A stretch of DNA of 64,000 bases, from positions 14,490,568-14,554,567 of the forward strand of contig CM020618.1 of assembly GCA_009829735.1 (NCBI GenBank), read 5' to 3'. Position 1 is the first letter of the stretch. The number at the start of each line of letters is the position of its first letter. A program made the position numbers and the translations under genes. The notes beneath the pieces are model-generated. The model made no database searches. It saw only the letters and a program-made list of their open reading frames with translations, and was not told the DNA's origin. The stretch comes from Pyropia yezoensis. Taxonomy: Eukaryota > Rhodophyta > Bangiophyceae > Bangiales > Bangiaceae. Positions 15,792 through 58,276 of the stretch are shown in pieces.

Positions 15792-16124
15792 TCATCTCAG
15801 CAGCGGTTGGAGGCGCTCAGTGAAGACGATTGGTGGCGCTAGGTGACCTATGGAAGCGCTAACAATGCATGCCAGTGACGCCACTTGCGCGTCCGTTGCG
15901 GCGGCCAGCTGCGCTTCCGCCGCTGACACTGCCGAGTCGATGGGTGCAGTGCCCTCTAGCCGCGCCAGCTCCGCCTCGAGTGACGAGGCCAGCTTCTTGG
16001 CCTTGGCCCACTCGGCATCGAGCGACCGCACCTGCGTCTCGGTGGTCGACGCCAGGCGGACGCTCACCTTGTCAAACACCTGCTTGAGCTTCACCAAAAG
16101 GGCACGTACATTGCGCCGTTGGTC
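15792..16124 (-). pseudogene. Coiled-coil repeat gene fragment, left arm of inverted pair
   Basis: The minus-strand translation is strongly helical and charged: units such as TETQVRSLDAEWAKAKKLAS followed by SLEAELARLEG and VSAAEAQLAAATDAQVASL. It resembles the plus-strand segment starting at about 16131, so the two look like inverted copies of one heptad-rich repeat family. Neither arm has a clear start, promoter or partner exon, so I read it as a gene fragment. An intact antisense gene is the alternative. Confidence 0.35.
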
Positions 16125-16130
16125 GGGGAC

Positions 16131-16647
16131 AATAATGCTCATCGCGGCGCTTTGCGAGATGGAGGCCGAGCTGGCGTCGTCGACTGCCGCCACCAAGTCC
16201 TCCCTCGAGGCGCAGCGTGCCACGGCAATCGCCGTCGCAGACGACATTGCCGCGATAATGGACCAGGGCACTGGTGCGACGGTGGCGGACCTGGCCGCCG
16301 TCGCGGAAGCGCGGGTGGGAGCGCTCGACGTGGAGCGCGCGCGCGCGCAGGCGCTGGTAGACTCGCTCGGCAAGGACATGGCGGCGTTGCCCGTCGGACA
16401 CCCTGGCGCGACTGCGGTGATGGTCATCGAAGGGGGCCTGAGGGAGGCGGTAGCCGCCCTCAGGACGGAGCACGCCAAGGCCATGGCTCTCGTCAAAGTG
16501 TTGGAGTCAGAAGTAATTCAGTGCGGCAGTGATCCGTCACAGCTTGCGGGGTGCGCGCCGTCACGCGACCCGTGGCGAAAGACGCGCCGGCGAGAAACCC
16601 GGCTCCACGTGTCGACGGACGAACCACACAACCCCACGTGTCCGTGA
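16131..16647 (+). pseudogene. Coiled-coil repeat gene fragment, right arm of inverted pair
   Basis: The plus-strand translation from the methionine at about 16134 contains two or three related helical units: SSLEAQRATAIAVADDIAAI, AEARVGALDVERARAQALVD and LREAVAALRTEHAKAMALVK. The spacing and the V-x-x-L-x-x-x-R-A-x-A-L-V pattern match the minus-strand arm. Past about 16524 the frame loses this character and becomes Arg/Pro-rich. No family is recognised; coiled-coil structural proteins are the likely source. Confidence 0.35.
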
Positions 16648-17026
16648 CGGATCAAGTCGACGTCCGAGCACCCGCTGCCTCTCTCGCCGCACCCCGGCCA
16701 ACGCGCCCGCCACGAAGGGCGGCCCGACACCTCGATCCACGCTGTGCTGGTCGTGGCGCTTGGGCGCACCGCCCCTCCTCCCCACCCAGCCCGTCACCCT
16801 CCCGTCACCCCCCGTTCCTCCCACGCGGCGGCAGAAGCCAGCCCGCGGGTGGCTTGCGACGCCGCTGCGGCTCTTTCCACCCCCCCCCCTTTCTCCCCCT
16901 CAACCGCTTCCCCTTTCGCCTCCTGCCCCCCTCAACCACCCACACGGCTCACACACGCTTTGCATGTGCCCACCCACCCCACGCCCCCCCTGCACCCAAC
17001 GCCCCCCTCCTGGCACATGTGAGACC
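16648..17026. other. Pyrimidine-rich 5' flank of the giant gene
   Basis: C/T-rich leader immediately upstream of the presumed start of the giant gene. No TATA element is evident. Confidence 0.4.
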
Positions 17027-20000
17027 ATGTCGCCGCCGCCAGAGCCACCCGGCGCCGACGCAGGCGCGTCGCCCATCAACCACCCCCCCTCCCCTCCTCG
17101 GGATGCCCCACACCCCGCTGTGGCTGAACCAGGCGCGCCCGACAGCACGGGCGACCTTGCAGGCGACTGTGGCGCAGGTGGCGGCAGCGGCGGCGGCGGC
17201 GGCGGCGGCGGCGGGAGCCCCTTCTCCCCCCCCCCCCCGCCCCCCCCGGTAGCGCCGAGGAGCTGGAAGCCGCCGCCGCCGCCGCCGCCGAGCAGCTGTG
17301 GGCGGCGCCGCCGCCGCGGACCGCGGGGGGCGGGGGTTCTCCACCGCCCGTGGGCGGTGGGGGTGACGGCCTCGTCGACGTTGGCTGGGGGGGCGGCTGG
17401 CCCGCCGCGGCGCTGATGGGGAACCCGGCCGCCGCGGGGGAGGGGTGGCTGGCGGCGGCTGCCGCCACCGCCCTGTGGCCGGGCGCCACGCCGCTGCTGC
17501 TGAGCAATGAGGATGGCGGGGGGGGTGGGGGGGGCGGCAGCGGAGACGGCAGCACCGGCGGCGGCGGTGGCGACGGCGGCGGCGGCAGCGGCGGCAGCGG
17601 CGGCGGAGAGGGCGGCGGCGGCCGAGAGGGCGTCGGCGACGGCGGGGGTGTGGCCCACGGCGGCGGGGATGAGCCGACCGTCCCTTGGCCGGGCGCGCTC
17701 GTCGGGGGGGTGACCTCCTCGTGGCCCGGTGCCAAGGTGGGCGGCGCCCCCGCCGCGTCGCCGATGCCCGCGCCAGACGCGTCGGTGCCCGTCCATGCGG
17801 CCGCCGCAGCGGACGCGCCCGACGATGCGCTGGAAGACCCGCTCGACGGGACATCGAGAGGCCCGCCGGTTGAGGTGCCAGCAGACCCGCCGGCGGGGGC
17901 GTCGGCAGACCCGCCGGTCGAGGCGCCGACAGACTCGCCGGCCGAAGAGCTGGTGGACCCACATGGCGACGTGCCGATGGACCTGTCCGACGAAGCGCCG
18001 ACGGGTGGTGCGGCGGCCGCGTCGGCGGCGGCCACGGAGGGGCCCCCCGCGGCAGTTGCGGCGCCACCGCCGCCGCCATTGCCGCAGTCCCCACCACCGG
18101 CGGCGCCGCCGCCGCCGCCGCCGTCGCCGCCGCTAGTCGGACCCCCCCCGCCGGTCGCCCTGCCGGGCACCCCACCGGGCGTGGCTGCGACGGCCGCTGC
18201 GGCGCGGCCGGTGGGGGTGGTGGTGGCTGCCCCGAGTGTGGCGCTTGTGAAGGGGGCAGTGCCGGCAGCGCCCGCCGAGGGTGGTGGGGCCGCCCGCGGG
18301 GGCGCCCTTGGTTCGCCCGCGAAGGTGATGGCGGGCGGCACTCCCGCGGGGCAGGCCTCCGCGGCCGGCCCATCCGCCACGGCCGCCGCCGCCGCTGCTG
18401 ACGCGGTCCAGGCACTTCCCGCGGCGGCTGTCACGGCAGGTGCGGGTGTGGCGGTGGGTGCAGCGGCGGGTGCGGCGGCGGTGGCGGCAGCGGCGGCGTC
18501 GGCGGCGGCGGCGGCGACCACCCCTGTGCCTCCACTGCGGGAGGCCGCGTCGGAGGGGCCCACGCCGGCGGCCACTTCCGCGGCGGGGGCGGGTCCTCTG
18601 GGCGACGGCGGAGGCGCCGCGCTCAATGTCGCGTCGATGGTGGTCGACAGTGCGGCGGCGGCGGCGGAGGTGGCACGTCCACTGGCGGTTGCGGCTCCGG
18701 AGGTACCCCCACTCGCCTCGCCCCATCCCGTACAGCTGGGTGCCTGCGCCCCCCCCGGCACGACGGAGGCGCCCGTCCGGGAGTGCTTGGTCGTACCGGC
18801 TGCCGGTACCGCCGCGGCGCCGCCGGCTGGGGGGCCGCCACCGAGCAGCTCCGCAGCCGTGGACCCTGCTGCTTTGGTAGTACCCGCTGCCGGCATTGGG
18901 CCAGGGAGTGCCGCCGAGTCGGCCGCGCTGCCGCCGCAGCCAAGGGGGATAGGTCTGACGCCACTGGCTGAGGGGCCGACGCGCCCCGTCACTCCCCCAC
19001 CGCTGCCATCGGGGTCTGCTGCGCCTGTCCCTGGCACGACGGCGGGTTCGATGGTAACCTCGCAGCCACGGGTGCCATCCACACCGCCCGCCTCGTCGGT
19101 GCCACTTGACCCAGCTGCGACGGCGCAGCCAGAGCCACCGCCGTCACGCTCCAGTCCGAAACCTGCTACCTTGGTGGTGGCGGCACCGTCGCCAGCTGCG
19201 CTGCCGCCGCCGCCCGTGGCGACGCCCGTGGCCACGCCGCGGCCCACGTCGACGCCACCGCCCGTGCCGACGCCTCCGCCCGTGCCGACGCCACCGCCCG
19301 CGTCGACGCCACCGCCCATGCCGACGCCACCGCTCATGGCAACGCTACCGCCTGAGGCGGCACCACCGCCCGTGTCGATACCGCCTCCTGTAGCGGCAGC
19401 GGGTGCGCTGACGCCCACCACAGGTGCGCTAGTGGCCTCGCCGTCTAGCGATGAGCCGCGACGGCCCGCCGTTGAGGCGCCCTCATTGCCATCGGTGTTG
19501 GCGCGAGGCCCTTCGCAACGGTCAGCGGCGGCGGTGTCCCCGCAGCTTGGGCGGGTACTGGCGGGCCCAGCCGGGTCCCTGACAGACGAGCAGGCCCTCG
19601 TCGGGGCACGAGTGCCCCCTCCGGCAGTGCCCTCTGGTGCTCTCCCGCCCAACACTGCGGCCATGACTGCTGAGCCTCCCTCGCTGCCAGCTGCGCCGGC
19701 GGCTACGGGTGCCCCCGTGGATACCCTGGCGTCGGTGTCGGCCAAGGCTCCCTTGTCGGGCGTGCCCGAACGAGCCGGTGCGGCGGTATCTGAGGACGCT
19801 TCTCAGGCCGCGACTGGCCCACTCCGTGCACCCTCTACATTGCCCGGGACAGTGGCTTCCGAGGCTCAGTCTATGCCCATGGTCGTCGAGGCGCCCGCAC
19901 AGGTGGCTTTGCCTGATTTGGCGGGGGCCCCCATGGCGGAGACCATGGCCGTTGAGGGGGCAGTGACTGTTGTGACGGGCATGCCCGATGTAGTGGCGAC

Positions 20001-23000
20001 CAAGAAGGCGAATGCGCCTGACGCGGGATCCCAGCCCATGGTGGTAGATGCGAGGGTAGTGGAGGTGGCGCCCAATGCAGCACCTGGTGCGGCGGGTTTG
20101 CTTAAGGCGGCCGCACCAATGGAGGTGGCGGCGACGGATGCGGCGGTGTCGTCTGACGCAGCAACTTCCCCGATGGCGGGCGTCGTGCCCGTTACCGCGG
20201 CAGCGCATATGACAGAAGCTTTGTCCGTGGTACTGGCGCCGCCTAAGGAAGCGTTGGCGCAGCGCGATATCGCGCTGTTACCCGATGCGAGGGTTTCGCC
20301 CGATGAGGCGCCTTTGCCCATAGCGACGGCAGCACGTGCAACGGCGGCGTCCACAGTGACGGCGGCTTCAGAAGCAGCAGTGGCGCATGACGTGGCGGTG
20401 GCCCGCGTGGTCGTGCTGCCTGTAGCGGATGCCAATTCCGAGGCTGCTGTGGCGTTTGGGCCCGAGGCCTCGGTTAGTGTGGCTCCTGGGGCAGAGGCCT
20501 CGATTGGTGTGGCGGCGGAGCCCAAGGATCCGACGCCACCAGTCACGAAGGCTGACGCCCGGGCGCCGGTGGCACCTGGCGCGGAGGCCTCGGCTGATGT
20601 GGTGGCGACGCGCGAGGCTCCAGCGGCGGGTGGCGCAGAGGCCTCGGCTGATGTGGCGGCGGCGCGCGGGGATGCGACGCCAGCAGTGACGGAGGCTGGT
20701 GCCCGGGCGCCGGTGGCACCTGGCACGGAGGCGTCGGCTGGTGTGGTGGCGACGCGCGAGGCACCGGCGGCGGGTGGCGCAGAGGCCTCGGCTGATGTGG
20801 CGGCGGCGCGCAAGGATGCGACGCCAGCAGTGACGGAGGCTGGTGCCTGGGTGCCGGTGGCACCTGGCACGGAGGCGTCGGCTGGTGTGGCGGCGACGCG
20901 CGAGGCACTGGCGGCGGGTGGCGCAGAGGCCTCGGCTGATGTGGCGGCGGCGCGCAAGGATGCGACGCCAGCAGTGACGGAGGCTGATGCCCGGGCGCCG
21001 GTGGCACCTGGCACGGAGGCGTCGGCTGGTGTGGCGGCGACGCGCGAGGCACTGGCGGCGGGTGGCGCAGAGGCCTCGGCTGATGTGGCGGCGGCGCGCA
21101 AGGATGCGACGCCAGCAGTGACGGAGGCTGGTGCCCGGGCGCCGGTGACACCTGGCACGGAGGCGTCGACTGATGTGGCGGCGACGCGCGAGGCACTGGT
21201 GGCGCCTCGTGCTACTGCGACGCCCAAGGTTGCACCAGTTGTGAAAGCCGTTCGCAATGCGTCCGAGACGTCCGTCGCTGAGGAATTGCTCGGGACGACT
21301 GTGGCGCCGGAGGCCGAAAAGAATGCCGCGGTCGGTGCGATGGCAGGGCAAGCCACTGCTCTTGCTGTCTCGGAGCCTCCTCTTGCGCCGATACCACCCC
21401 CTTTGTCGGTGGTGCGATTGGTGACCCAACCGTCCGCGGCGGTGGTAGGGCCGACATTGGTCGATAGCGTCTCCCAAGTGGTGGCGCCCGCGGACACGGC
21501 TACCGGGCCGCAGCGGCCACCCCTTGTGTCATTGCGTGAGGCAGTCGAGCCCGCTGCTGAGCTGTCCCCCCGCGCGCGCACGCCCGCCCAACCCGTGCCC
21601 GCCGCGATGGTGGCGGCGACGGTGCTTGTGGCGGGCGCACCGGCTGAGGAACTGAACAGACCCGGCCGTAGGACCGACGGCGGTGCGGACGGGGCAACCA
21701 CCGGAGGGACTTCCCAGACGGAGGTGGTGCCCTCCGCGGCGGGGGCGGCGCAGCGTGCCACTGCGGGTGGTGGCGGCGGCCCAGCCCCTGCTGCTGGGGC
21801 ACGTCCTGCCTCTGTGGACGTAGCCGGCGCACCGTGCGACGGGCCGCCCGGAGTGCGGGGTGGCGTGGCGAAGAACCCGGCAGGGGGGGACGAGCCAGCC
21901 CGCTCGGACGTTGCCACTATGGCAGATACAGCGGCTGGGGTGAATACCTCGACGGTGAACGGCCCGCCGCCCGTGGTGGACGGCCCGGCGGGCGCGGGCT
22001 ACCCATCTGGGGCCGCCATGGAAGTGGACACACCCCTTGCGGGGATGGCCGCACCTGTCGCTCCCCCCAAGCCTGCCGCCGGCGATGATGCGATGGAGGT
22101 GGACACCCCCGCCGACGGTGGGTCGCTCTTGGGGCCGCCAGGCAATGTTGCCGCTGTGGCAAGTGGCGGCAGCGGCGACGGAGGCAGCGTCTGCGGCGGC
22201 GGCGGCGGCAGCGGTGGCGGCGTAAGCGGCGGCGGCGGAGGCGGAAGCGGTGACGTTCACGGCGGCCCCGGTCGCAGTGGCATCGGTCCGCCCGCGGGAC
22301 TGCATGCTCTCATAGGTGGCGCCCGGCTGTCTGAGGACACCGCTGCGCCGACCGTGGGGGGCTCTGCGCCGACTGCGGAGAGGCCTACGTCGAGAGCAAG
22401 AAGGCCAATGCCGACCGCAGGTGGGCCAACCCCACGAGCCGGCCCGGCGGCCGCTGAGGGGGGCGAGAGGGAATCGGCCGTGGCAGGCCCGCTCAACTGT
22501 GCTGGCGCGGCGTCGCGCGTGGTGCAGGCGCCTCCCACGAGGGTGGGCCTGCATGCTTCGCCGCCCGCGTCGTCGCCCGGGTCGCAAGAGGAGCGCCCAG
22601 CGGGGGGTGCCGCGACTGCTGGTGCAGACGCATCGCCCACGCCCCCTAGAGAGGCGGCCCCCGCGTACTTGACAGAGGCGGCTCCCACATCGTTGACGGT
22701 GGCGGCGCCCGCGTCCTCTGTGGCGACTGGTCCCGAGCCATCGATATTGGCTGCACCCGAGCCGCCCACGCCCGAGGTGACGCTGACCCCACCCGCGTCT
22801 TCGACGGTGGCAGCGCCTAATCCGTCGATGGGAGCCGCACCGGAGGCCTTGGCGGTGACCGGGCTCCCTTCCTCAACGGTGTCGGCGCCTGCGTCTGACG
22901 CGCCCGGGACGTTGCCAGCTGCACCTCCGTCCTCGTCGGCGGCGCCCCCGTCCACGTTGGCCACCCCTTCGTCCCGGCCGCCCACGCAGCCTCCCCCGGT

Positions 23001-26000
23001 CGCCCCATCGCCGCCGCCGGCCCGTGCGGGTGTGCCGGTGACACCGGTCGCTGAGCGTTCCGTACCAGCGGCCGCGTCGGCTCCGCCGGCCTCCCCACCG
23101 GCAGCACCAGCTGCAGCGTGCGCCGCCTCCTTGGCCGACCTCGCCGCCGGCCCCGTTGTGTTGCCGCTCGCCCCCGCTGCTGCCATCACCATTGGGGGGG
23201 TAACGTCGACAGTGGTGCCGCCGCCGTCTCAAGACGCGGCTGGAGTCCTGATCGCGGCCGAGTCGTCGTCGGATGCGGCCGGTGCCGGTGTGCTCGCCGC
23301 CGGGGGGCACGGCGGGGCGTCGCCGCCATCGCCACAGGCTGCAGTATCTTTGCGCACCGCGACGGTGCTGAGCTCTCCGCGATCACCCGCAGCGGCGCCA
23401 AGCTCCCTGCGGTCACCTGCGGCGGCGCCGGGCCCCCCGCCGACGCCAGCGGCGGCGCCATCTCCCCCAGCGGCGTCCACCTCCCCTGCGGCGCGGACTC
23501 CCCCAGTGGTACGAGCTCCTCCGGCGGCACCGACTCCCCCAATAGCGCCGACCCCCCTGGCGGCTCCGGCCGGGGTGGACGAATCGCCGCCGCCGCGGTC
23601 GCCAGCTGGCGATCTGGCATCGCCTGAGGCTGGCGGCCCCGCCGCCAGCAGTGGAGACCCTTTGGAGGCGGCCGCGGCAGGCGGCCGCCCAACTGCTTTG
23701 GCCGCGCCCGAGCGGGAGGCGGCCGGCCCGGGCCCGACCGGGCCCGGCGTGGCGCCACCGCAGGGGGCACGCCCGTTCGCCGCCCCCCTAGGTGCAACCG
23801 GGCCGGTCCAGGTACCTCCATCGGTACCGGCTCTGGCTGCGGCAGCGGCCCCCGCGGGGGCGGCAACCGCTCCCCGCGGTACGCCCGCCACTGCGACGGC
23901 CGCGCCTCCGTTGGCGGCCGCGGCGCGTGTGCCAGCTTCGGCCTCGGCGGACAGGGCGACCCAGGCAACGACGGGGGGGGGCGCCATGGCGGCAGAGCGG
24001 CTTGCGGCGGGTGTGCCGCCATCGTCTGTCAAGGCCGTCTCTCCCGGCGCGGCCGCAGCCAGCAACGCGCCGTCCTTTTCGGCTGCCTCGGTGGCTAGTG
24101 TCCCGCCGACCAGTCCTGACCCCTTGCCCACCAGGCCTGTCGTCCCGCCCACCAGGCCTGTCGTCCCGCCCACCAGGCCTGTCGTCCCGCCCACCGGGCC
24201 TGTCGTCCCGCCCCCCGGAAGTACCGCAGTGCCCACCGAGAGTGTCACCCAGCCCACCGGGAGTGCCGCCGGGCCCACTGAGGGTGCCGTTGCCCAGGCT
24301 GGCGCTGTCGTTGCGCCATTCGGGGGCGCCGTGGTGCCCACTGAGGGTACCGTCGCGTCTGCTGGCGCTCCCGTCACGGCCACCGGGGGTGCCGTTGCGC
24401 CAACTGAGGGTGCCGCCACACCCGCCGGTGTTGTCGTCACGCCCGCCGTGGGTGATGTCGTTGTATCCACCAGGTCTGCCGTGCCTGGCGGACTCCCCAC
24501 TGAGCGGTCAGGGGTATTGCCGCTTCCTTCCTCTACTGAAGCGAGAGCGGCGTTGCCCGTGGTGACACCCGTCACGACCACCGTGGTGAAGTCGTCCCCG
24601 TCCGCTACGGTACGGGCCGCGCCCTCCGTGTCGGCGCCAGTTTCCGGTGGTCTACCGAGTGGGGCAACACCGGCGTCGACCGCGGGGCCGCCGTCAGCCG
24701 ACGTGACTGGCAATCCCACGGGGCCTGCAGTGGGGTGTGCGGCCTCCGAGGGTGGGGCGGATGTGACCCCGCCGGATGGGGAGGATGGCAAGGCGACGGC
24801 GTCTCCAGATGATGGGGCCACAGGGGGCGGCGGTGGTGGCCGCGACGCGCCCACCGGGTCGGCCAGCGCTGGGCCATTGGTGACGCCGACGCCTGCGCCG
24901 GCGCCAACGCCTGCGATGTCGACGCCACCAGCAAATTCAACGCTTGCTCTGGGTTTTCGGTCATCGCCAACGCCTGCCAGTACTGCTTTCCCCGGCACGG
25001 ACCGGACGGCGGCGTCTCTCTCGCCGGCCGAGACATTGGTCAGAGCCGCGGGCGACGCGGGCGACGACCCCCTTGATGATGATACCATGGACGTTGACGC
25101 AGGTGGTGACGTACCGCCATCCCCTGCGGATGCTCCCAGCGGTGGGCGGGACGTGGCCAATGGCGCCACAGGCGGCGGTGGCGGTGCCGACGGTGGTGCC
25201 GACGCGGATGATGCCATGCGCGATGTCGACGACGGGGACCTGTTTGATGGTGGCGGCGGCGGGTCGGGTGACGACGGCTTCTCCGGCGGCGACTGGGTGC
25301 CAGCGTCGCCCGTCGCGGACGCCTTGGAGGCCACGGGCAGCTCAGGTGCGGTGACCACGTCGCCGCTTATTGGACCTGAGGGCAAGCGCTATCTGTACGA
25401 TTGTCTGGCGTCTTCGGACTTGGATCCTAAGTCGTTTGTGACGGCCTTTCAGGCCACCCACAGCCTGCCACCGTGGACCAAGCCGGCGCTGGACCTAATT
25501 ACCGCGTCGGGGCTATCGCAGGCAGACGCGCATCAAAAGGTGGTGGCGTACATGGTGGACAAGATGGTCGCTACCATTGCCGTCAGCGCGGGGGGTGGCG
25601 GCAGTGCGGGCCACCGCGCTTCTGGCGGGGGCACCCCCCTCCCGCCTGTCTCCCATGAGTCGATGGTGGCCCTGCTAGTAGCGTCTTTCCCTCACCTTTC
25701 CACTCCCCACCTGGCGCCCGTGCCGACGGCGCTGCTCGTACACCTGCCCGACCCGCCCGAGGAGCTGCTGCTGGAGCTGGCGGCGTCGGCCCCCGCCAAG
25801 CCCCCCTACGTGGGCCTCCCGCTGGATGTCAAGCGCAAGGTGTGGGACGCCCAGGGCTCCTGGTCCGCCGCCTTTGATGCGGACGCCTCCGCCGCCATTG
25901 ACGCCTTCCTTGTGGTCCCTTCGTACGGCGGCCGCCGGCCAGACGGGCGGGTGCACTCCATTTCCGACGCGAACGGCCCCGACGACTGGACTCCACCGCC

Positions 26001-27117
26001 GCCGGGCCCGACCGCCTACCTCCGCGCGGCGGTAGGGGACAGCCCAGACCGGTACGGGCAGCTGGCCGACGCGCTCGTCGACCGGTACGCCGAGGCGTCG
26101 GCGCCGCCCGCAGGGCCCGCCGTCCGCCGCGGCAACGGCAGCGGCATCGGTAGCGGAGGTGGCGAGTACGGGTCGCTCCTCGTTGCGCTGACGGTGGCGA
26201 TTGCGGCGGGCAGCGCCGTGGCAGTTCACCCCGAAGGGGAGGTCCTGGCCGTCGCGTCGGGCCTGGACGCGGCCGCCCGCCGCCGGGAGCTGACGCCCGC
26301 CACCGCGGTGGGCCTCGCCGAGATTACGCGGCGGCCGCTGGCCGGCGAGACGGCCGCCCGCGTCGCGACCTGCCTTGCCGCCCCCGTCGCGACTGGCCTC
26401 ATCGCTGCCGCGGTGCTGGCGCGGGTGACCGCCCTCGTTGCGGCGCAACCACGACGGCCGCCACGGCTGCTGGGCGTGGGTGGCGCGGCGGGCACCGCAG
26501 CGGGTGGTGGCGGGCAGGACGTTGAGGAGCTGCCCCCCGCCGACGCGGCGGTGGCGCGCGCAATGGCGGCGGCGGGGCGGGACGCCGGCCTCGCCGCGCT
26601 GCTGCACCTCGCTGCGGCGGTCGCCGCGGCCCGCGTGTCGGTGGCGCGCAAGAAGCTGGTCACGGACGCGGCGGCGGCGGCGGCGCTGGCGGATCTGCCC
26701 GCCACCCTTGCGCGGCTTATTGCAGATGACGCGGCGCGGTTTGGGCCGGGCGCCACCGACGATGCCGGGGGGGGCGGCCCGGCAGGGGGGCGGCCGGGAG
26801 GCGCCCCCGGGGGTCCTGGCGGCGGCGGTGCGGGCTGGGGCGCGCCCGCCGCCGCCGCAGCGGCCGTCGCAGACGATGCGGACCTCCCCGACGCGGCCGT
26901 CGGCCGCGTCATTGCGGCGGGCGGCGTGGCAGCCGCGACGGTCATGCTCTACGCGCTCGGTCGATGGCGGGCAGGGGACGTGGTCGGCTTTTTCCGCCTC
27001 CGCGCGGCCGTGTCAGACACGTTTGTCGCCGCGGGGGGTGCGGTGGGCTGGCTCGGCAGCACCGCCGACGTGCTGCTAGACGTGCTCGACGAGTGGGACC
27101 ACGATGTGCTTGACTGA
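17027..27117 (+). CDS. Giant disordered protein with NELF-B/COBRA1-like C-terminal domain
   Basis: One frame is open without a stop from about 17221 to the TGA at 27115-27117. The best start is the ATG at 17027 (context GAGACC), in a different frame; the change falls in poly-C runs at 17226-17247 and the parts would be in register with one more C, giving about 3,363 residues. The first 2,700 or so are Ala/Pro/Val/Thr/Gly-rich and disordered, with recurring acidic MEVDTP-like motifs. The last about 584 residues look folded and match the length and order of NELF-B: FQATHSLPPWTKPALDLI aligns with the NELF-B segment beginning FQTENGVLLPSL, LPDPPEELLLEL with LPKVPEKKLKLV, and DVKRKVWDAQ with EVKRQIWQDN. 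NELF-B is a helical subunit of the complex that holds RNA polymerase II in promoter-proximal pause. The assignment is by eye. Confidence 0.6.
19200..19390 (+). repeat. 15-bp proline-rich coding repeat
   Basis: Irregular repeats of ACGCCACCGCCCGTG and variants within the giant gene, coding for TPPPV/TPPPA units. All copies stay in frame. Confidence 0.65.
20476..21205 (+). repeat. 144-bp (48-residue) tandem repeat in the giant gene
   Basis: Four to five copies of a 48-residue unit. Each contains EASADVAAARKDATPAVTEA, then GARAPVAPGT, then EASAGVAATREALAAGGA. Copies differ at scattered positions (for example GVV versus GVA, REAP versus REAL), and the outer copies are more divergent, as in an array that expanded from its centre. 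The period is a multiple of three, so the frame is kept. Confidence 0.85.
24125..24215 (+). repeat. 21-bp tandem repeat coding for PTRPVVP units
   Basis: Four adjacent copies of a 21-base unit containing CCCACCAGGCCTGTCGTCCCG, the last with a G for A change (PTGPVVP). Nearly identical, so recent. Confidence 0.85.
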
Positions 27118-29414
27118 TGTGAAAGGGGGACGCCATGCCAACGTGAAGTCAAGGGGTGTGTACTGATTGTGTGTTGGGTACTTCTCTTTGTGGGGGTGTT
27201 ATGGGGGGTTGTACCATTGGCTGAAAGCATGGCCACGATCCCCGGCGACCCTTCCGGCTCGCGCCGCGTGGTGCCATGGGGGGCCCCGCGCGTGCTGCAT
27301 CGATGCCGATGACGGGTGTTGCCCTGCTGGCTAGGCTCCATCATGCCGTTGCCCACGGACCAATGGAGAGTGCGGGGCTCGTACGAGCACTTGTGGCTAT
27401 GGAAGGGGAGCGGTGATGAGTCTGTCTTCACTCCTGCAATTTCACCCGCAACGACTTCGTGTGCGCGTGATGGTACCGAGGGAGGGGACGAGGAGAGCGT
27501 GAGCCGCGTTAAAGTGTCAAGAGCGACACCGCCACAAGAGCGACAGCGCCATACTCTAAGCGGCATGACCTGAGTCGTACACGGGAGCCCTCAACGAAGA
27601 CTAGCGGAGTCAACACAGGCATAACCAATCGAAGAGAGCAAGGAGCGCCGCCGAGGGGAAACGCCGCGGCGAATCCCAGCGGAAGGGTTAGCCGATACTG
27701 CCCGCAGACGACCGCCAGTGGGTTCATGAAGGGTCAGTTGCTGTTGGGGGCTCGCGCGATAGAGGCCCGCGCGGGCGTGGAGAGGGCGCGCGGGCGGGAA
27801 TGTGTGTCTCTCATACATGGCGGTTTGACGCCGGGATTGATGTGCGTCAAAGAGGGGACACCGCTCGCACGGGGGCGCGGTCGGGGCCCCCCCGCTCCGA
27901 TAGTGGTGCATGAATCGTTTGGTTTAATCATCGAAACAAATGGGGGAAGAGGGGGAAGGGGGGAGAGCGGGGCGAGGGCGACAGAGAGGAAGGAAGGATG
28001 GGGTAGGCGTGCACACGTACCTGAGCACGAGGGCGGCTCCGTCGTCAATCCCGGTCATCAGCTGTACAGGGTCCAGGGTGTGGGACAAACAGCCTGCCTA
28101 CGGGGATACCAGCGAGGGCAGACCAAGAGTGTCGCGCACGAACACCCAAGGAGCACTGGGGAAGGGCAGAGAGCAACGGGTTAGATAGACGCACGGGGCA
28201 GACGTCATGGCAGTGCAGCAGATGGGGGAATTACAGGTGGGAGGGTTCTCTCAGCCGAAAGATGGTGTTGTATACTGATATATCCACAGCCGGCCGTGAC
28301 CGTTCAGAGTGGTGCAAGTACGTGATCATCAATGAGAACGGAGACAGGGGGAAGAGGTGGGCTGCGGCGCAAAGCGCGGGCGGCGGGGGGGGGCTTGACG
28401 GAAGAACATACCAAGTGCGTGGCGGAGGCGTGGCCAGCACAAAGCCGACACCGGATCATCGCATGCTGCGGCGTCACGGACGGCCAGCCCTCAGTAGCGT
28501 CGACCATGATGGCGGCGCGCTCGTGACCATGATCAGCGGTGAAGGCTACCCCCGAAAGAACGGGGAGCCGGGAAGTGCACGGGGAAGCGCGCTTGTCGCG
28601 GAGTCCATGACGGATCAGCACGCCCACAAATTGGCAGACAACACAGATAACAGGATGGTCGACGAGGGCGAGGCGAAGGCGTCCGCAGCTTGTTGTGCCA
28701 TCCCCGACGTTGTGGCGTGGAACGAGGCCACGTTGATCATGATGAAAGGGGTGGTGGGCACACGACGACGGCGGCGTGTGGTTCGGATCAACTGAGCGTC
28801 AAATCGATTGGGGGTTGCTTCAAAAGAAAGAAGCAATTCCTTTTCCTGCTGATGTGGTTGGCCACGTTTCTTCATCGTCAAGTTGTTTTGGTGTCAGCGG
28901 CGTGCAATTCGGACGTCGGCGGTGCGGTCGGGGGCAAGCCGAAGTCGCTGACGATGTGCCATCCACGTGAGCCACACGCGCACTCGGGCGAGGTCCCCGG
29001 ACGATCGCACGCCATACACCCCCTGCCGGCGGTGGCGTACGCGCGACTTCGCGGCGTGACAGCCCTTGCTGTCCAGCCCAGCCCGCCAGTCCCCGCCCTC
29101 GGCCGCCCGTCTTGCAACCGTAACCCTATCACGGCCGCCTGACTCCGGCTTACTCCCTCTTCCTCTGCCTACTCATCCTCCTCCTCCCCTCCCCCTCTAC
29201 CCCGACGGCCGGTAGGTGTCTTCTCCTTCCCGCCTCACCCGTCGCCTCCTTTTTGCAGCTGGTCCCGATTGTCGTCGTTGGTGGGCATCGCTCCCTCGTG
29301 TGCCCTTCCTCCCGCCTCTCCTCCCCCGTTCCTCTCTCCCCTCCCCTTCCCCCTACCCCCACGTCTGCGGCTGTACCACCCGCCCTCGTCCCCCCCGCCC
29401 TCCTCGCTGCAGCC
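27118..29414. other. Gene-poor region with a possible multi-exon minus-strand gene
   Basis: No complete gene can be assembled. On the minus strand several short segments look coding and are bounded by splice-like signals: about 28720-28420, ending at a GTATGT donor; about 28375-28235, preceded by GCCGCAG and containing RPAVDISVYNTIFRLREPSH; and about 27727-27509. The phases I can read do not all agree, so this stays a candidate. The last 150 bases before the SND3 gene are C/T-rich. Confidence 0.25.
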
Positions 29415-30269
29415 ATGGCGCTCCCCGGTGGCGTCAAGCAGATGATCATTACGTTCGGGGCCATTTCGCTGCTCAAAAAGGTGGACCAGACCGACGCCCG
29501 CGTTGTGGCCATCTGCCGCGTTATCTTTGTTGTCTACATGGCCATCTCCCTGTCGGTGCAGCTTTATATCCGGTCACGCATCTTGGCCAAGAAGGAGGGC
29601 GGCACGGTTACGGTGCCGCCCAAGCCGGCCAGCCCATTTGCAGCGCTCTCCGAGCCCGCCCCGGACACGGACGCGGTGGACGCGGCGGCCAAGGATGGCG
29701 ACGCCTCGGCAGAGGAGGATGTGGATGCCACCGTCGACGCCACCGCGGGGGGGCGCCGCAAGCCGCGTGGCGCCGCGGCGGCTGCCGAGCCGCAGGTTAT
29801 GACCACCGAGGAGTACGACCTGTCGGTACTGGCGACGGTCCGCCGGGGCCTCCTCTTCAACGCCCTCCTCCTGTCCGTGTTCCACCTCAAGATGGGCAGC
29901 CTCAACCCGCTGGTGATCACGTCGGCGACGGGGCTGGCGCGACTGCTGGATGAGCCCCTCTTCCAGCTCCACGTCCTGGGCCGGCCCGCGGAGGACGCGC
30001 TGCAGCGGCCGTTCAAGCCCGAGGTTAACCCGCTGATGGCCATGCTCACCGGCACCCCGCCCGACGTCGCCGACGCGGACGCCGATGCCCCTGCCGCCGA
30101 CGCGGATGCGCCCGCGGCGGTGGCCGCGGCGCCAGTGACGGCGGCGGGGGGAGGGGAGGGCGCCAAGGGCGCCGCCGCGTCGGCCACCACCGCGCGGCGG
30201 CGCAAGGCGGCCGCGGGCACGGGGGCCACGCGGCGCGTGCCGGCAGTGGCGGGAAGGAAGGACAAGTAA
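29415..30269 (+). CDS. SND3: PHO88/SND3 family ER membrane protein
   Basis: 284 residues from the ATG at 29415 (context GCAGCCATGG), no intron. The family (Pho88, SRP-independent targeting protein 3) is an ER membrane component that helps insert proteins whose signals lie inside or at the end of the chain; in yeast it was first linked to phosphate uptake. The N terminus (LPGGVKQMIITFGAISLLKK, then a hydrophobic helix at about 28-51) matches the family, as do MTTEEYDLSVLATVRRGLL, a short third hydrophobic segment, FHLKMGSLNPLVI and the signature HVLGRPAEDALQRPFKPEVN. There is an acidic, low-complexity insertion at about 85-130 and a long Ala-rich, basic C-terminal tail not found in yeast. The RPFKP motif makes the assignment firm. 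Confidence 0.9.
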   Translation: MALPGGVKQMIITFGAISLLKKVDQTDARVVAICRVIFVVYMAISLSVQLYIRSRILAKKEGGTVTVPPKPASPFAALSEPAPDTDAVDAAAKDGDASAEEDVDATVDATAGGRRKPRGAAAAAEPQVMTTEEYDLSVLATVRRGLLFNALLLSVFHLKMGSLNPLVITSATGLARLLDEPLFQLHVLGRPAEDALQRPFKPEVNPLMAMLTGTPPDVADADADAPAADADAPAAVAAAPVTAAGGGEGAKGAAASATTARRRKAAAGTGATRRVPAVAGRKDK

Positions 30270-30637: not shown

Positions 30638-32298
30638 TTATTCTGGCAGCTTCCCCGAGTGCGCCAGCCCCCCCGCTCGCACGTCTTCCAAGTACTGACA
30701 GTAGGTGCACGCGAGGCGGCCCTTGCCCCCCCAGGATGCCGCAACGGGCGCCGGCGGCTCTGGCTGCTCGAGCACCCCCAGGACGTCGCCCAGGAAGGCG
30801 CCAAACGCCGCGTCGTCCCGCGTGATGGGCACCCACACCGCACGGCCGCGGAGGTCGGCCGCGACCGTATCGCCCGGTGACGCGTACGCTGGCAAGGAGG
30901 GGGCGGCGGCGGCGCCATTCGCGGCACCCCCCCCCTCCGCCACCGCCGCGGCCGCTGCCACCGCCGCAACCGCCGCGTCGTCGCACGCGAACGAGATAGG
31001 CTCATAGACGACGAGGCCCATGTGGGAGACCCGCCCCGGCAGCAGCTCAGACGCGTCAGACGGGCACTCAAGCGCGTAGGCATACGCGTGTAGCTGGCGG
31101 GCATAGATGTCAAGGCTCTTGGCGACGGAGGAGGTCTTAAAGTCAATCACCCCATACTCGTCCTTTTCGTCGCGCACCAGGCAGTCCAGCTGTCCCGTTT
31201 GTCGCACCACAGCGTCCCACGGGGTGGGAGGGGAGGGGGGGAGGGAAGGGGAGCAGACCGGGGTAACGGGGAGGAGCCCGACGCGCAAACCACGACAGAC
31301 AAGACCAACAGAGCAGGAACGGTGACGCGCGCGTGAGCAGCAGAGCAGAGGGGACGGCGTGTTGGCCCCCAAAGCACGCCAACCCGCAGGGCCAAGCCCG
31401 AGCGTGTCGGCGAAACAACAAGGGATGACCAACGGTCCCCAACGCACACCAGACAGCCGACCTGAGCGTACGAGCCCACTTACCCTCCCCTCTCGTCCCC
31501 CGCCCACACCCGGAACACCCCTGGACCACCGCACCTACCCTCTCCGCGTCGTCCCCTCCCTCTGCGCCCCCCCCCCCACCTTACCTTTCCCCGAATATAC
31601 ACGGTCGACGAGCGCCCCGGCACCGACAGCGGCACGCTCTCAACCCACGCGTCCTCGTCCTCACACAAAAATTCTCCCGGCGGCATGGCCGGCAGCACCG
31701 CCCCCGTGAGGCGGCCGCGAAAGTAGCGCTTCATCTCCAGGTCAATGGTGTTAAACACTGACGGGAAGGGCGCGCGCGGCCGGTACAGCCGGCCGTGCGC
31801 TTTGAGGTAAAAGCACCGCGCGCATGACTCCCACAGAAAGGCGAAGTCCGACGGGGCCAGCCGAAAGGTGCGCCCGCCGCCGCCGCCGCCGCCACCGGGC
31901 ACCGCGGGCGACGGCGCCCCGGCGACGGCGGCCGGGGCACCGGCGGCCGCCGGTGGGGGCGGCGGGGCGGTGGCCACGGCGGCCGCGGCACCGCCCGGCG
32001 GGTGCCCCAGCGGGCGGGGCACGCCCCCACCCGTGCGGGGCGCGCTGGCGGCCGCCGCCGTGGCGAGCCGACGGCCGCCCCACGGGGAGGTGGCGGCGGC
32101 GGCGCCAACGGCGGCGCCGCCTGCCCACCCGCGGCCGACGGCGGCGGCAGTCGCTGCGGGTCGACCGACGACGCCACCGCCGCCGCCGCCGCTGCCACCG
32201 CCGCCGCCCGCGCCGAGCCGCCGCAGGCAGTCGAGAACGACAGCCGGCCGGCGGCATAGCGGCGCGGCCACCGCGGCGGCGGGCACAAAGGCGGCCAT
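30638..32298 (-). CDS. RecB-like PD-(D/E)XK nuclease-family protein
   Basis: 421 residues. Exon 1 is 32298-31585 (ATG at 32298), the intron 31584-31190 (donor GTAAGG, acceptor GACAG) and exon 2 31189-30638; the junction is phase 0 and joins IRGK to LDCLVRDEKDEYG. The core motif G-K-L-D240 followed by GVIDFKT (Asp254, Lys256) is the metal-binding and catalytic signature of RecB/Cas4-type nucleases. Upstream, LAPSDFAFLWESCARCFYLK (148-167) matches the first helix and Cys pair of the family; near the C terminus CTYCQY adds a second C-x2-C, as in members with an iron-sulphur or zinc site. Close relatives are uncharacterised bacterial and plastid proteins. The Arg/Ala-rich N terminus suggests organelle targeting. 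Substrate unknown. Confidence 0.8.
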
Positions 32299-41466: not shown

Positions 41467-42684
41467 TTGCCGCCGCCGCCGCCGCGGCTGCGGCCGCTGA
41501 CGCCGCCCACCCCCCGCCCGCCGGCCGGCGGCCGCAACGACGATGCGGTGAGCGCGAGCCGCGAGGCGAGGCCCCGCGGCCGCCCACCGCCACGCCCCGT
41601 CTTAATCCACCCCCCACCCAGCGTCCTACCCGCGGGGCTGGCCGGCCCCGGGGCCCCCGGCTGGCCAGTGCAATCACACCGCGGCGCCAACGGGTCGTGC
41701 GTGCGTGCGAGGCACGGGACGTACGCGGATGGGCGCGACGGTGACACGCTCTTGCTGCGGCGGGGATGCGAAGCGGCGCCGCGCCGCGCGGACGGAGGAT
41801 GGGGGGGGCGGGAGGGGAGGGGAGAGGGGGGGTGGGTGGAGTCCCGGCTCCCAAGCCACCACTCCGAGCGCCGACGTGCTCCCCCCCACGGGGCAGCCAC
41901 CCCGCCGCCACACACCCCCCCCCCGCGCGGCATCACGGCCGCGCACGTCCCCCCCCTGACGTGCTCTGGCTGTGACGGCAGACAGGCCCGAGCACATCAA
42001 GTGCGGCGGGGTGGGGGGGGGGTGGGGGCGTGGACGGGCGGCCCTCAAGTCCTTGCCGCTCTCGCCTCGCCCTTCCCCCTCCCCCCGCACACCCACTGTG
42101 CACGTGCGCGCGGCCGTTGGTGCCGTCGACGCCCGCCGGCCAGGCCGGCAAACGCCCCCGTGCCTGCGCCGCCGCCGCCGGCAGGGGCGTCGACCAGGCA
42201 TCCCGCGGCCAGGTGGGTGGGGGGGGTGAGCAGGGGGAGGGTTGGGAGGCGGCGGCGGCCGGGGTGGAGCCGTCCGTTGCCCCTCCAGTCAACCGCCGCC
42301 TGCTCCTTTCTTTTCCCCCCGCTCCCCCCCTACCACGCCGACGCGTCCTCCACGCCGCCCCGCCTCGGCCTGTACTTTTTGGCAGCCCCTCACCCCTCCG
42401 TCCCTCCCCGCTGCCGCACGTCGCGCTGCATCCACCCCCATTATCATCTCCGCCGGCCGGCGTGCTACCTGCCCTCCCCTCCTCCTCCCCCCTTTAGTCG
42501 CCCGCCAAAGCGTCGCTCCCACAACCCCGCACAGCCCACATCCGCATCCCCGTTCCCCCCCCCCTCTCCCGCCTCGGCTTGCGCCAGACGCTTCCTCCAC
42601 CCCCACCCCCCCCCCCTCCCTCCATCTTGCCGGTCCCCTCCTCGTTATTGTGTTTTTTTTTTTTGTGGCCCTTGTCGTGGCGTC
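40069..42684. other. Gene-poor 2.6-kb region
   Basis: Contains an isolated TATATAG at 40777-40783 with no supported gene downstream, long C runs (about 40738-40750, 40801-40813, 40929-40945), a CCG microsatellite at 41445-41500, and a C/T-rich leader with a T run (42650-42664) before the Hint gene. The open frames on both strands are compositional and show no motif. Confidence 0.4.
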
Positions 42685-42943
42685 ATGCGCCGGCCCGGCG
42701 GCGGCGTGTGCCGCCGGCCCCGCCCCCCCGCCCCTGCCCGCGCCCTCCCGCTGCTGGCGGCACTCGTGGCGGTGACGGCGGCGGCAGCGACGGCCGCCGC
42801 TCACCCCACCGCCGCGCTGCCCGTGGCCGCGGCGGTCCCCCCCCGGCGGCACCCCCCCCCCCGCTCCTCCTCCCCCCGCCGGCGGGGAGCCTCACCCCCA
42901 CCGTCCGTGACTGGGACCGCTCGTACTTCATCGACTCGTATGT

Positions 42944-42976
<33 letters not shown>

Positions 42977-44624
42977 CGGCGGCAGCAGCAACGACGACGA
43001 CGTTGCCGCCCCCCACCGCGGCTGCCCGCCGCGCCTGTCGGTCACCGACAGCGAGACGGTGGCAAATGTGAGTGGCGGCGTCGCGGCGGGGGTGCTGCTC
43101 CTCCCCCGCTGGCTCACTGCCGACGACGCGTCGTGTGCGGTGCCGCGGGTGTGCCTCGAAGGCGACGACGAGTGCGCAGCGGCGGCGGTGGGGGAGGCCG
43201 TCTCGGCGCCGGGCGTCCGCGTGACGCTCGTCAACAGCCGCGACGGCTTCAACGCGACTGGGGGAGAAGCCGCGGGGGGCCCGCCAGGGGTGCCCGCCGT
43301 CGAGGCCGTTCTCGCCACCGCGGGCGGCGGCTACTACCGGGGGGGCACCAACGGCACCCTCCGGTGTGGGGTGTGGGCGCTGTCGGGCGTCAGCTACTGG
43401 GTGTTTACGCCGCGCGCCGCCGGGCCGCCGGCGCCGCCGGCGCCGCTGCTGGACCTCCCAGGCTCGGGGGTGGCCATCCCGCCTGGCGTCAAGGCCAGCG
43501 TGTGGTACGTGGGGGAGGGCGGCGGGGAGGGCGCGGCGGGGGAGGTGTGCACGTACGTTGACTCGGCGTCGGCGGGCAACTGGACGGCCGCACCGCCCGC
43601 CGCGCCGACCCGCCCGCCCGCGCCGCGGCCGGCCGACCCAGACGGGGCGGCGCCGACGCCAGACGACACGGTGGCGCTGCCGCCCGCCGGGGGGGGGGGG
43701 GGGGGGGGCGGCGCCCCGGCGCCCACCCCGGGGGCGGTCGACGCGCCCGCCGACGCCACGCCCACCCCCGCCGCTGATGCCGCCTCGCCGACGCCCGAGG
43801 CGGACAGTGGCGGCACCGACGGCGACGGCGACGGCGACGGCGACGACGTCGAGTGCTTCCCCGCCGACGCGGCCGTGTCGCTGGGCGGCGGCGGCGGCGT
43901 GGCGCGGGCGGCTGACCTCCGGTGGGGCACCCGGGTGGCTACCCCCGACGCGCCCGGCGGTGGCGGCGGCGGCGGCGGCGGCGGCTCCCCCCTACTGGTG
44001 TGGACGCACGCCCACGCCACCGCCCGGTCGTGCAACTATGTGACGCTTACGACGGCAGCGGGGCCGGCAGTGACGCTGACGGGGGGCCACCTGGTGCCGG
44101 TGGGGGGGGTGCCCACCGGCCAGACGGTGTTGAAGCCCGCCCGGCACGTGGCGGTGGGGGATGTGGTCGGGGTAGTAGTGCCCACCGAACAGGGGTCGGG
44201 GGCCGGCAGCGGGGCGGGGGTCCCCACCCCCTCGACCGTCACGGCGGCGAGCGTCGGCTGTGCGGTCGGCCTCTACTCCTTCCACACCACCGAGGGGGAA
44301 ACGCTGGTGGTGGGGGGGGTGGTGGTGAGCCAGTGGACGCAGGGGGGGGGGGCACGCCGCGCGGCGGGCCACGCCGCCCTGCGGGTGCTCCGCGCAGCCG
44401 CGGGCCTGGCGGGCCTCGGCGGCAGCGACGGGACGCCGCCCGCCGCTGTGGCCTGGCCGGGGGCGGGGGGGGGCGCCGCCGTTGTCACTGCCGCCCGTCG
44501 GTGGCTGCTCGGGTGTTTCCGCCGGTCCGTGCCGCCAGGCGCGCGGCGGGCGTGGGCGGGGGAGGCGCCCTGGCTTGGGCGCGTTGCCGTCGCCGCCATT
44601 GCCCCCCGCGCGGGGAGGTCCTGA
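42685..44624 (+). CDS. Secreted Hint (Hedgehog-like autoprocessing) protein
   Basis: About 646 residues. The ATG at 42685 opens a signal peptide (ARALPLLAALVAVTAAAATA); the frame then changes at an 11-base C run (42852-42862) and would be continuous with one more C. The N-terminal part (about 75-310) is an unknown secreted domain with several Cys and N-glycosylation sites, including RDWDRSYFIDSYV. A Pro/Asp-rich linker leads to the Hint domain, which begins at ECFPADAAVSL (nucleophilic Cys near residue 390), continues with SPLLVWTHAHA and TLTGGHLVPV (the T-x-x-H block) and ends at GLYSFHTTEGETLVVGGVVV. Hint domains cut themselves from the upstream protein, as in Hedgehog. The C-terminal 100 residues are Ala/Gly-rich and may be a sterol-recognition-like or spacer region. 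Confidence 0.75.
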
Positions 44625-57196: not shown

Positions 57197-58276
57197 TCAA
57201 GCTCCTAACCCACCCACCTCATCCAGCGCGGCCATTAGGTCTTCAACTAACACGGGCACGCCAGGCCCCAGGTCGCTACTCACCGTCGCGGCCACGACAA
57301 ACCGCTTCTTGATGACCGCTGGCTTGGCCGCCACCACCGCCGCCACCGCCGCCACCACATTGGCACGCACCTTGCCCATCGCCACCGCCGCCTCCCCCTC
57401 CCCCTCCGCCCCGCGGATGCCCCCCACCCGCCCCACACGCATCGCAACGTTGCCACCCTCGTCGTTGCGGAAAAATATCCACCGCCCGCTCTTGGCCGCC
57501 TCCACAGCCGCCGCCGCACCGTCGGGCCCATCAAAGACGGTCCCCTGTTTCGTTAACGGTAGCAAACCGCGGGTGCCCAGCACCTTGCCCGCCGTCCGTG
57601 CCACGTCGCCCGCCACGGCCGACTCGGCAAGCGCCACATCCACGGCCTCGGCGCCCTTGGCAAACCCCCGCCCCTTGGTGGCCCCCAGGGACGCTGCCAG
57701 GCGGGCGTCGCCGACAATGTCAGCGCCCGCGGCGGTGGCGGCGGCGGCCACGGGGCCGCCCTCCTCGGCCACAAACACCCCCACCCGGGGGGGCACAGCC
57801 GTAACGGGGTGGGGAAGCATCACCGACGACCGCACCGACTGCGCCGCAACGCGGGCGTCAATGCCCAGCCGTAGGCATAGGCGGACGCCCTCGTCGTAGC
57901 GGGCGAAGGAGAGGGTGGCGACCGCATCGAGTGCCGCGTCGAGCGGCAAGGGGGGGGACTTGAACGCCGCCGCCGCCGCGCGCGCCTGGCGCCGCGCCTC
58001 CTGCCGGGCATGCGCGGCCGTGGAGGCGGGGGTGTTGGTGGCCGACGGCGCCGCGGCGGGGGGAGTGGGCGCGTAAGGGGGGGGCGGAGGGGGGCGGGGG
58101 GGCGTGCCCGTCCGCCCGCTCGTGCGTGACGAAGCCGTCGCCGCGGCCGCAGCCGAAGCGGCGGCAGAAGGGGGCTTGGCTGCCGCCGCCGCCGCCGCCG
58201 CCAGAGCGCGACGGCCGAGGGGGTGGGAGGGGAGCAGGCGCCGAGCAAGCCGCGCCAGGCTGGGTAACGACGACAT
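57197..58276 (-). CDS. mrpl1: Mitochondrial large-subunit ribosomal protein uL1
   Basis: 359 residues from the ATG at 58276, no intron. uL1 forms the L1 stalk of the large subunit and helps release deacylated tRNA. The family pattern is clear: YDEGVRLCLRLGIDARVAAQ, SSVMLPHPV, RVGVFVAEE, ADIVGDARL, VDVALAESAVAGDVAR, LGTRGLLPLTKQGTVF, and at the end VRANVVAAVAAVVAAKPAVI and FVVAATVSSDLGPG. The N terminus (MSSLPSLARLARRLLPSHPLGRR) is a basic amphipathic presequence. Because red algal plastid genomes encode rpl1, a nuclear bacterial-type uL1 in such an organism should serve mitochondria; if the host is not a red alga, a plastid role is possible. About 60 Ala/Pro-rich residues separate the presequence from the domain. 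Confidence 0.85.
   Translation of the reverse strand: MSSLPSLARLARRLLPSHPLGRRALAAAAAAAAKPPSAAASAAAAATASSRTSGRTGTPPRPPPPPPYAPTPPAAAPSATNTPASTAAHARQEARRQARAAAAAFKSPPLPLDAALDAVATLSFARYDEGVRLCLRLGIDARVAAQSVRSSVMLPHPVTAVPPRVGVFVAEEGGPVAAAATAAGADIVGDARLAASLGATKGRGFAKGAEAVDVALAESAVAGDVARTAGKVLGTRGLLPLTKQGTVFDGPDGAAAAVEAAKSGRWIFFRNDEGGNVAMRVGRVGGIRGAEGEGEAAVAMGKVRANVVAAVAAVVAAKPAVIKKRFVVAATVSSDLGPGVPVLVEDLMAALDEVGGLGA

What the first reader, a model, noticed from the sequence alone, without database searches (positions are those of the whole stretch)
25365..27117. NELF-B/COBRA1-like domain at the end of a giant red-algal-type protein
The last about 584 residues of the 10-kb frame have the length of NELF-B and share several ordered motifs with it (FQATHSLPPWTKPALDLI, LPDPPEELLLEL, DVKRKVWDAQ). 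NELF controls promoter-proximal pausing of RNA polymerase II and is described mainly from animals, slime moulds and some protists. A copy in a red-algal-type genome, fused to about 2,700 disordered residues, would bear on the age of polymerase pausing and on whether condensate-forming tails replace other NELF subunits.
Basis: partly seen in the sequence, partly recalled or inferred. Interest (0 to 1): 0.82.

Follow-up and report, generated by a model that had tools for sequence, protein, structure and literature searches.

The report
NELF-B-like protein in a red seaweed
A red seaweed (nori) gene appears to encode a divergent version of NELF-B, a part of the brake that holds RNA polymerase II near gene starts, apparently attached to a very long disordered stretch; a partner subunit, NELF-C/D, is also in the genome, so the ancient core of this brake probably exists in this red alga.

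Summary
Largely real, but narrower than claimed. A 3,329-codon open frame (17128-27114 +) ends in 584 better-ordered residues, of which the first ~180 resemble human NELF-B 13-170. Best match among 177,635 PDB sequences is NELF-B (E 0.0084; first unrelated 0.11). Human NELF-B's best place in the 107-Mb genome is this ORF (E 0.018; next 2.28). None of 20,000 shuffles reaches the score. The last ~400 residues show no similarity, and Pfam COBRA1, which covers human 108-449, does not match. The genome also encodes NELF-C/D (TH1, 27.6 bits, cut-off 24), the subunit that binds this end of NELF-B. NELF-A and HEXIM were not found (no positive control). Contig sizes match Pyropia yezoensis. Best reading: a divergent NELF-B ortholog, probably fused to ~2,700 low-complexity residues, forming a NELF-B/C core. 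Since NELF-B and -C/D are already reported as widespread and ancestral (PMC11482795), this extends a known family.

The parts
17128..27114 (+). Open frame, stop to stop (first in-frame ATG 17416; stop codon 27115-27117); 3,329 codons
   Evidence: Over 17128-25362 this frame has 0 stops; the other two + frames have 55 and 63, the - frames 19, 5 and 32.
17416..25362 (+). Low-complexity, presumably disordered segment (Ala 24%, Pro 17%, Gly 12%; F, W, Y, I, L and M together 7%)
   Evidence: Composition over 17128-25362. All 26 tandem-repeat rows inside the 17128-27114 frame (some overlapping, five of period 3) have periods that are multiples of 3. 0 of 500 block shuffles leave a + frame without stops.
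20487..21204 (+). Five-copy array of a 144-bp (48-residue) repeat inside the low-complexity segment
   Evidence: 94% matches. Differences by codon position are 40/56/24, so no sign of purifying selection on the repeat's residues.
25363..27114 (+). C-terminal 584-residue region; codon-position GC 0.81/0.60/0.83
   Evidence: Synonymous-codon score highest in this frame of six, but that test picked the right frame in only 1 of 3 known genes.
25372..25914 (+). NELF-B-like N-terminal domain, human NELF-B 13-170; core match 25423-25851 = human 25-152
25915..27114 (+). Rest of the region, Ala/Gly-rich with Gly-rich stretches; no detectable similarity to NELF-B. May be diverged NELF-B helical repeats, not shown
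   Evidence: not significant; A+G 41% in residues 186-584.
24916..25218 (+). Last three in-frame ATGs before the domain (24916, 25087, 25216); a start here would give a NELF-B of ordinary size (about 633-733 residues)

Best explanation
The region is a divergent red-algal NELF-B, single copy at the sensitivity used, probably translated as the C-terminal part of a very long protein. Its N-terminal ~180 residues keep much of the surface that in animals docks NELF-C/D; the algal NELF-C/D on another chromosome is the likely partner. Together they would form the ancestral two-subunit NELF core, which with DSIF (SPT4/5) would bind early elongating RNA polymerase II and slow it. The C-terminal part, which in animals anchors NELF-E, has diverged beyond recognition, in keeping with NELF-E being metazoan. 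Shown: the sequence match and its extent, the unbroken frame, and NELF-C/D and SPT5 sequences in the same genome. Inferred: orthology, the B-C contact, translation as one chain. Not tested: binding to polymerase, pausing, and any role of the low-complexity segment (spacing, recruitment or phase separation).
For: Best PDB matches of the tail are the six NELF-B sequences, E 0.0084 to 0.07; the next of 18 rows has E 0.11. Human NELF-B against the whole genome: best of the two candidates scored is this ORF (19 bits, E 0.018), the other 11.9 bits, E 2.28. 0 of 20,000 shuffles reach 18.0 bits, maximum 10.1; residues 1-165 z = 12, 0 of 1000. Single-sequence hhalign of this one pair: P 1.4e-4, probability 52%. 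The alignment begins near the start of both. TH1 over its cut-off in the same genome, and that piece finds human NELF-C/D in the PDB with E 3.7e-5. Further hand-picked pieces of locus L005 fall in order along human NELF-C/D in 5 of 7 cases, one with 0 of 1000 shuffles. SPT5 NGN domain found. The conserved part is tied to NELF-C in the literature: NELF-C crosslinks mainly to NELF-B K85, K92, K126 and K146 (PMC4940160, passages), and removing the first 78 residues abolishes NELF-A/C binding but not NELF-E binding (PMC10591015, passages).
Against: No Pfam COBRA1 hit although the model includes human 108-152, within the match. The database-wide E-values (0.0084, 0.018) are modest on their own, and the PDB holds only part of protein space. 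Residues 165-584 show no similarity to the rest of NELF-B; the control comparison with NELF-C/D even scored better (36 of 1000, against 979 of 1000). Point mutants named 183 and 194 also abolish NELF-A/C binding (PMC10591015, passages), so part of the docking surface may lie beyond the matched stretch. No relative from another red alga could be fetched for a profile (none in viral or prokaryote collections). No fold prediction. NELF-A not detected (no positive control). For the fusion: the repeats show no purifying selection, one antisense frame over the upstream segment has only 5 stops, and ordinary-sized starts exist.
Confidence: 0.77

Rival explanations
1. A normal-sized NELF-B (about 633-733 residues) starts at one of the ATGs at 24916, 25087 or 25216; the 8-kb open frame upstream is untranslated or belongs to another transcript, so there is no giant fusion.
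For: In-frame ATGs at 24916, 25087 and 25216. GC3 is 0.83 in the domain, against 0.67-0.84 (mostly about 0.70) in the 900-base windows upstream. The 144-bp repeats show no purifying selection. One antisense frame over the segment has only 5 stops, so composition alone can keep frames nearly open here. The synonymous-codon score favours the frame over the segment as a whole, but outright in only 4 of its 8 windows, and the test picked the right frame in 1 of 3 known genes.
Against: 0 stops in 2,745 upstream codons, against 55 and 63 in the other + frames; 0 of 500 shuffles stop-free, each with at least 25 stops. All 26 repeat rows inside have periods that are multiples of 3. A separate coding unit in the same frame would lack a stop codon.
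Confidence: 0.33
2. Only the N-terminal ~180 residues come from NELF-B; the rest is a new, unrelated Ala/Gly-rich tail, so the protein is a NELF-C-binding fragment without the rest of NELF-B.
For: No significant collinear similarity beyond residue ~184; 41% Ala+Gly in residues 186-584.
Against: The total length after the domain start is close to NELF-B's. The end piece lines up with human 419-452, but 921 of 1000 shuffles score as high, so it counts for nothing.
Confidence: 0.25
3. Chance resemblance: an unrelated helical algal protein that happens to share an FQ...LP..PE...VKR.W pattern.
For: Modest database-wide E-values (0.0084 and 0.018); no Pfam match. A second genome place selected by the same search scores 13.1 bits, near the 14.3 of the window ORF when that is scored as one 3,329-residue sequence.
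Against: Two searches in opposite directions pick the same pair out of 177,635 sequences and a 107-Mb genome; 0 of 20,000 shuffles; the expected partner NELF-C/D is present.
Confidence: 0.08

Closest known systems
NELF-B / COBRA1 (human; PDB chain 7ycx_f)
   Same: N-terminal ~180 residues collinear with human 13-170, 30% identity over human 25-152; best match in both search directions
   Different: Rest of the sequence not recognisable; Gly-rich insertions; long low-complexity N-terminal extension in the same frame; no Pfam COBRA1 match
Core NELF (NELF-B plus NELF-C/D) of unicellular eukaryotes as described in PMC11482795 and PMC10591015
   Same: Both core subunits found in one genome; NELF-A and HEXIM not detected; SPT5 present
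   Different: Red alga rather than the lineages named in the parts of those texts that I saw; degenerate RNA polymerase II C-terminal domain in this genome; function untested
Four-subunit metazoan NELF
   Same: Two of four subunits by sequence
   Different: NELF-A not detected (no positive control; a homolog is reported in the green alga Chlorella variabilis, PMC4940160, passages), NELF-E not searched; NELF-E-anchoring part of NELF-B not recognisable

Membership tests
NELF-B / COBRA1 | Pfam PF06209 match over the curated cut-off | tested here: not met
   The model covers human 108-449 only, so most of the matched stretch lies outside it.
NELF-B / COBRA1 | Best sequence match in both directions with human NELF-B | tested here: met
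   against PDB sequences only; whole genome, two candidates scored.
NELF-B / COBRA1 | N-terminal NELF-C/D-binding region | tested here: met
   By sequence only: human 13-170 aligned, residues 1-165 z = 12. Binding not tested; mutants 183 and 194 of the mammalian protein, outside the match, also lose NELF-C (PMC10591015, passages).
NELF-B / COBRA1 | C-terminal part that anchors NELF-E | tested here: not met
   No sequence similarity in residues 165-584; fold not testable.
NELF-B / COBRA1 | HEAT-like helical-repeat fold | not testable with these tools
   Structure prediction switched off.
NELF complex | NELF-C/D present in the genome | tested here: met
   (TH1 25.9-27.6 bits against a cut-off of 24, positions 440-550 of 579). 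The rest of the gene is supported only by short pieces.
NELF complex | NELF-A N-terminal domain present | tested here: inconclusive
   PF23553 gave nothing, and nothing rang in the 14 control genomes either.
NELF complex | NELF-E present | not tested
   Its RRM is shared with many proteins (PMC11482795, section 6), so a domain search would not decide.
NELF complex | Causes promoter-proximal pausing | not testable with these tools
   Needs run-on sequencing in the alga.

The most novel reading that the evidence does not exclude
Red algae keep a two-subunit NELF-B/C core that works on a polymerase II whose C-terminal domain has largely lost its heptad repeats, and NELF-B itself carries a ~2,700-residue low-complexity arm. 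The arm, rather than NELF-A and NELF-E, would concentrate or tether the factor at promoters, giving a form of pausing that depends little on the heptad code.
Probability: 0.12. Interest if true: 0.8.

Novelty: new member of a known kind. Interest (0 to 1): 0.5.

Why it matters
A 2025 structural paper still calls NELF metazoan-specific (PMC11881899, passages), while comparative work places its B and C/D subunits in the common ancestor of eukaryotes and reports their loss in land plants (PMC11482795, section 6). A B/C pair in a red alga would support the ancestral view from a second plant-side lineage, and offers a multicellular organism with a degenerate polymerase tail in which the role of a NELF core can be tested. 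It also warns that Pfam COBRA1 can miss divergent orthologs because it leaves out the N-terminal part that is conserved here.

Tried and rejected
Profile route: Pfam hmmscan of the tail and of the whole ORF at E up to 10 listed no family; genome search with PF06209 gave no candidate. Relatives for a profile: viral contigs and genome contigs gave none (4 and 291 pattern matches, none confirmed). Full-length homology: tested by local and end-gap-free global alignment with shuffles and left unproven. shuffle counts as high as the real score: against NELF-B 153-580, 979 of 1000; 153-480, 630; controls: reversed human 770, NELF-C/D 36; middle piece 955; end piece 921. Codon test: the score was meant to show that the upstream segment is coding, but it picked the right frame in only 1 of 3 known genes (SPT5, not Pho88 or ribosomal L1) and outright in only 4 of 8 upstream windows, so I give it little weight. 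Selection on the 144-bp repeats: no purifying signal. Remaining parts of NELF-C/D against the PDB: the searches were swamped by Gly-rich linkers, so short pieces were compared directly. The seven pieces were chosen by eye with the human sequence in mind, so their shuffle counts are optimistic: 119, 242, 14, 73, 82, 0 and 27 of 1000; pieces 2 and 4 matched out of order. They lie in different reading frames of L005, so introns or frame changes would be needed, which I did not work out. A second genome place for NELF-B (L011; E 2.28, 13.1 bits) was taken as noise. Literature: 'NELF' with 'Rhodophyta', 'RNA polymerase II' and 'elongation factor' gave 0 papers; 'negative elongation factor' with 'red alga' gave one, which reports no red-algal NELF in the passages seen. 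Searches listed no title on red-algal NELF among the 20, 2, 10 and 9 papers shown. Supplementary tables could not be read, so a red alga may already be in the table of PMC11482795.
Full report
What is there. The + strand holds one open frame from 17128 to 27114, 3,329 codons, with its first in-frame ATG at 17416 and its stop at 27115-27117. Over the first 2,745 codons this frame has no stop, while the other two + frames have 55 and 63 and the - frames 19, 5 and 32; none of 500 block shuffles gave a stop-free + frame, the lowest count being 25. Of the 27 tandem-repeat rows found in 16000-28500, 26 lie inside the frame and all have periods divisible by three; some rows overlap and five have period 3 itself. 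This is fair evidence that the upstream part is translated, though the antisense frame with only 5 stops shows how far composition alone can open a frame here. Codon statistics add little: over the whole segment the synonymous-codon score is highest in this frame of six, but outright in only 4 of 8 windows, and the test chose the right frame for only 1 of 3 known genes. The five copies of the 144-bp repeat differ mostly at non-synonymous places (84 of 102 differing codon pairs), so the residues of the repeat are not under visible constraint. The segment is 24% Ala, 17% Pro and 12% Gly.

The host. The window lies in a genome of 107,475,971 bases in 11 contigs. Contig 1 has 43,592,136 bases and contig 2 has 34,331,705. 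The published Pyropia yezoensis scaffolds are 43.6, 34.3 and 29.4 Mbp (PMC7423979, passages). I take the host to be that red alga; no tool named it.

The NELF-B match. The tail (605 residues from 25300) was compared with all PDB sequences: the best six of 18 rows are NELF-B, E 0.0084 to 0.07, and the first unrelated row has E 0.11. In the 584-residue region the match joins algal residues 21-163 to human 25-152 at 30% identity. Local alignment extends it to algal 4-184 and human 13-170. Shuffling the algal region in 20-residue blocks (10,000) or throughout (10,000) never reached the real 18.0 bits; HMMER listed a match for 4,092 and 2,572 of them, with a maximum of 10.1. In reverse, human NELF-B searched against the whole genome puts this ORF first, E 0.018 against 2.28 for the only other candidate. 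The domain's first 212 residues have no second convincing place in the genome (best other E 0.05).

The limits of the match. Residues 165-584 have no collinear similarity to the rest of NELF-B. The Pfam COBRA1 model does not match; scanning human NELF-B shows that the model matches human 108-449, so it sees only the end of the conserved stretch. No second NELF-B sequence besides the human one could be had, so no profile-profile test was possible; a single-sequence hhalign gave P 1.4e-4 and probability 52%.

The partner. Pfam TH1 (NELF-C/D) rings over its cut-off at two places on contig 2, 27.6 bits against 24, over positions 440-550 of 579, and the predicted piece finds human NELF-C/D in the PDB with E 3.7e-5. 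One place (L005) also carries further stretches resembling human NELF-C/D; of seven hand-picked pieces, five match in order, the clearest at human 323-364 (0 of 1000 shuffles), the others at 14 to 119 of 1000, and two match out of order. They lie in different frames, so the gene model is open. The other place (L004) shares a 1.4-kb stretch at 96% identity with L005 and looks like a partial duplicate. SPT5 is present. NELF-A_N and HEXIM gave nothing, but no control genome rang either, so absence is not shown.

How it most likely works. [quoted passage not shown] Removing the first 78 residues of NELF-B abolishes NELF-A and NELF-C binding but not NELF-E binding, while removing the last 60 does the reverse; mutants named 183 and 194, beyond the matched stretch, also lose NELF-A and NELF-C (PMC10591015, passages). 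The part kept in the alga is thus at least a large piece of the NELF-C-binding part, and the part lost to recognition includes the one that holds NELF-E, a subunit for which strong evidence exists only in metazoans (PMC11482795, section 6). The simplest mechanism is a two-subunit NELF-B/C core that binds DSIF-bound polymerase II early in elongation. The step to polymerase binding and pausing is inferred. A pausing-independent role is possible, as has been argued for NELF-B in mammalian cells and suggested for its orthologs in simpler organisms (PMC10591015, passages).

What is known. NELF-B and -C/D are described as widely distributed and probably ancestral, lost in land plants, yeasts and C. 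elegans (PMC11482795, section 6), and present in single-celled fungi, protists and Viridiplantae (PMC10591015, passages). Finding them in a red alga is therefore expected rather than revolutionary. I saw no paper in the held library that reports it (searches, listings only except where passages are named), and the relevant supplementary table could not be read. The long low-complexity arm is the unusual feature, and its translation with the domain rests on the open frame and repeat periods alone.

Noticed in passing
G000 contig 1, 9630000-9637500 (L013, - strand): The RPB1 gene of this genome ends in a degenerate C-terminal domain: SP-rich with a few scattered YSPxSPx-like units, no long tandem heptad array. 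This agrees with the statement on red algae in PMC4215175 (passages).
   Followed up: partly
L004 and L005 (contig 2, about 126 kb apart): Two copies of the NELF-C/D C-terminal coding stretch, 96% identical over 1.4 kb; L005 appears to hold more of the gene than L004.
   Followed up: partly
window 18637, 19879, 20038, 22018, 22093, 25087, 25216: A short Met-x-Val-Asp/Glu motif (once Met-x-x-Val-Asp) recurs seven times in the low-complexity segment, twice as MEVDTP and twice in acidic patches just before the domain.
   Followed up: no
window 42498-44621 (+): Open frame with a Hint module (PF01079, 36.1 bits against a cut-off of 29.7).
   Followed up: no
window 29124-30266 (+) and 57200-58351 (-): Ordinary eukaryotic genes nearby: Pho88-like (PF10032) and ribosomal protein L1 family (PF00687), used as coding yardsticks.
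   Followed up: yes
window 30641-31534 (-): Open frame with a PD-(D/E)XK nuclease-like match (PF12705, 24.8 bits against a cut-off of 22).
   Followed up: no
L005 6977-8557 (+): A sulfotransferase-like frame (PF03567, 24.8 bits against a cut-off of 22) lies just downstream of the NELF-C/D stretch.
   Followed up: no
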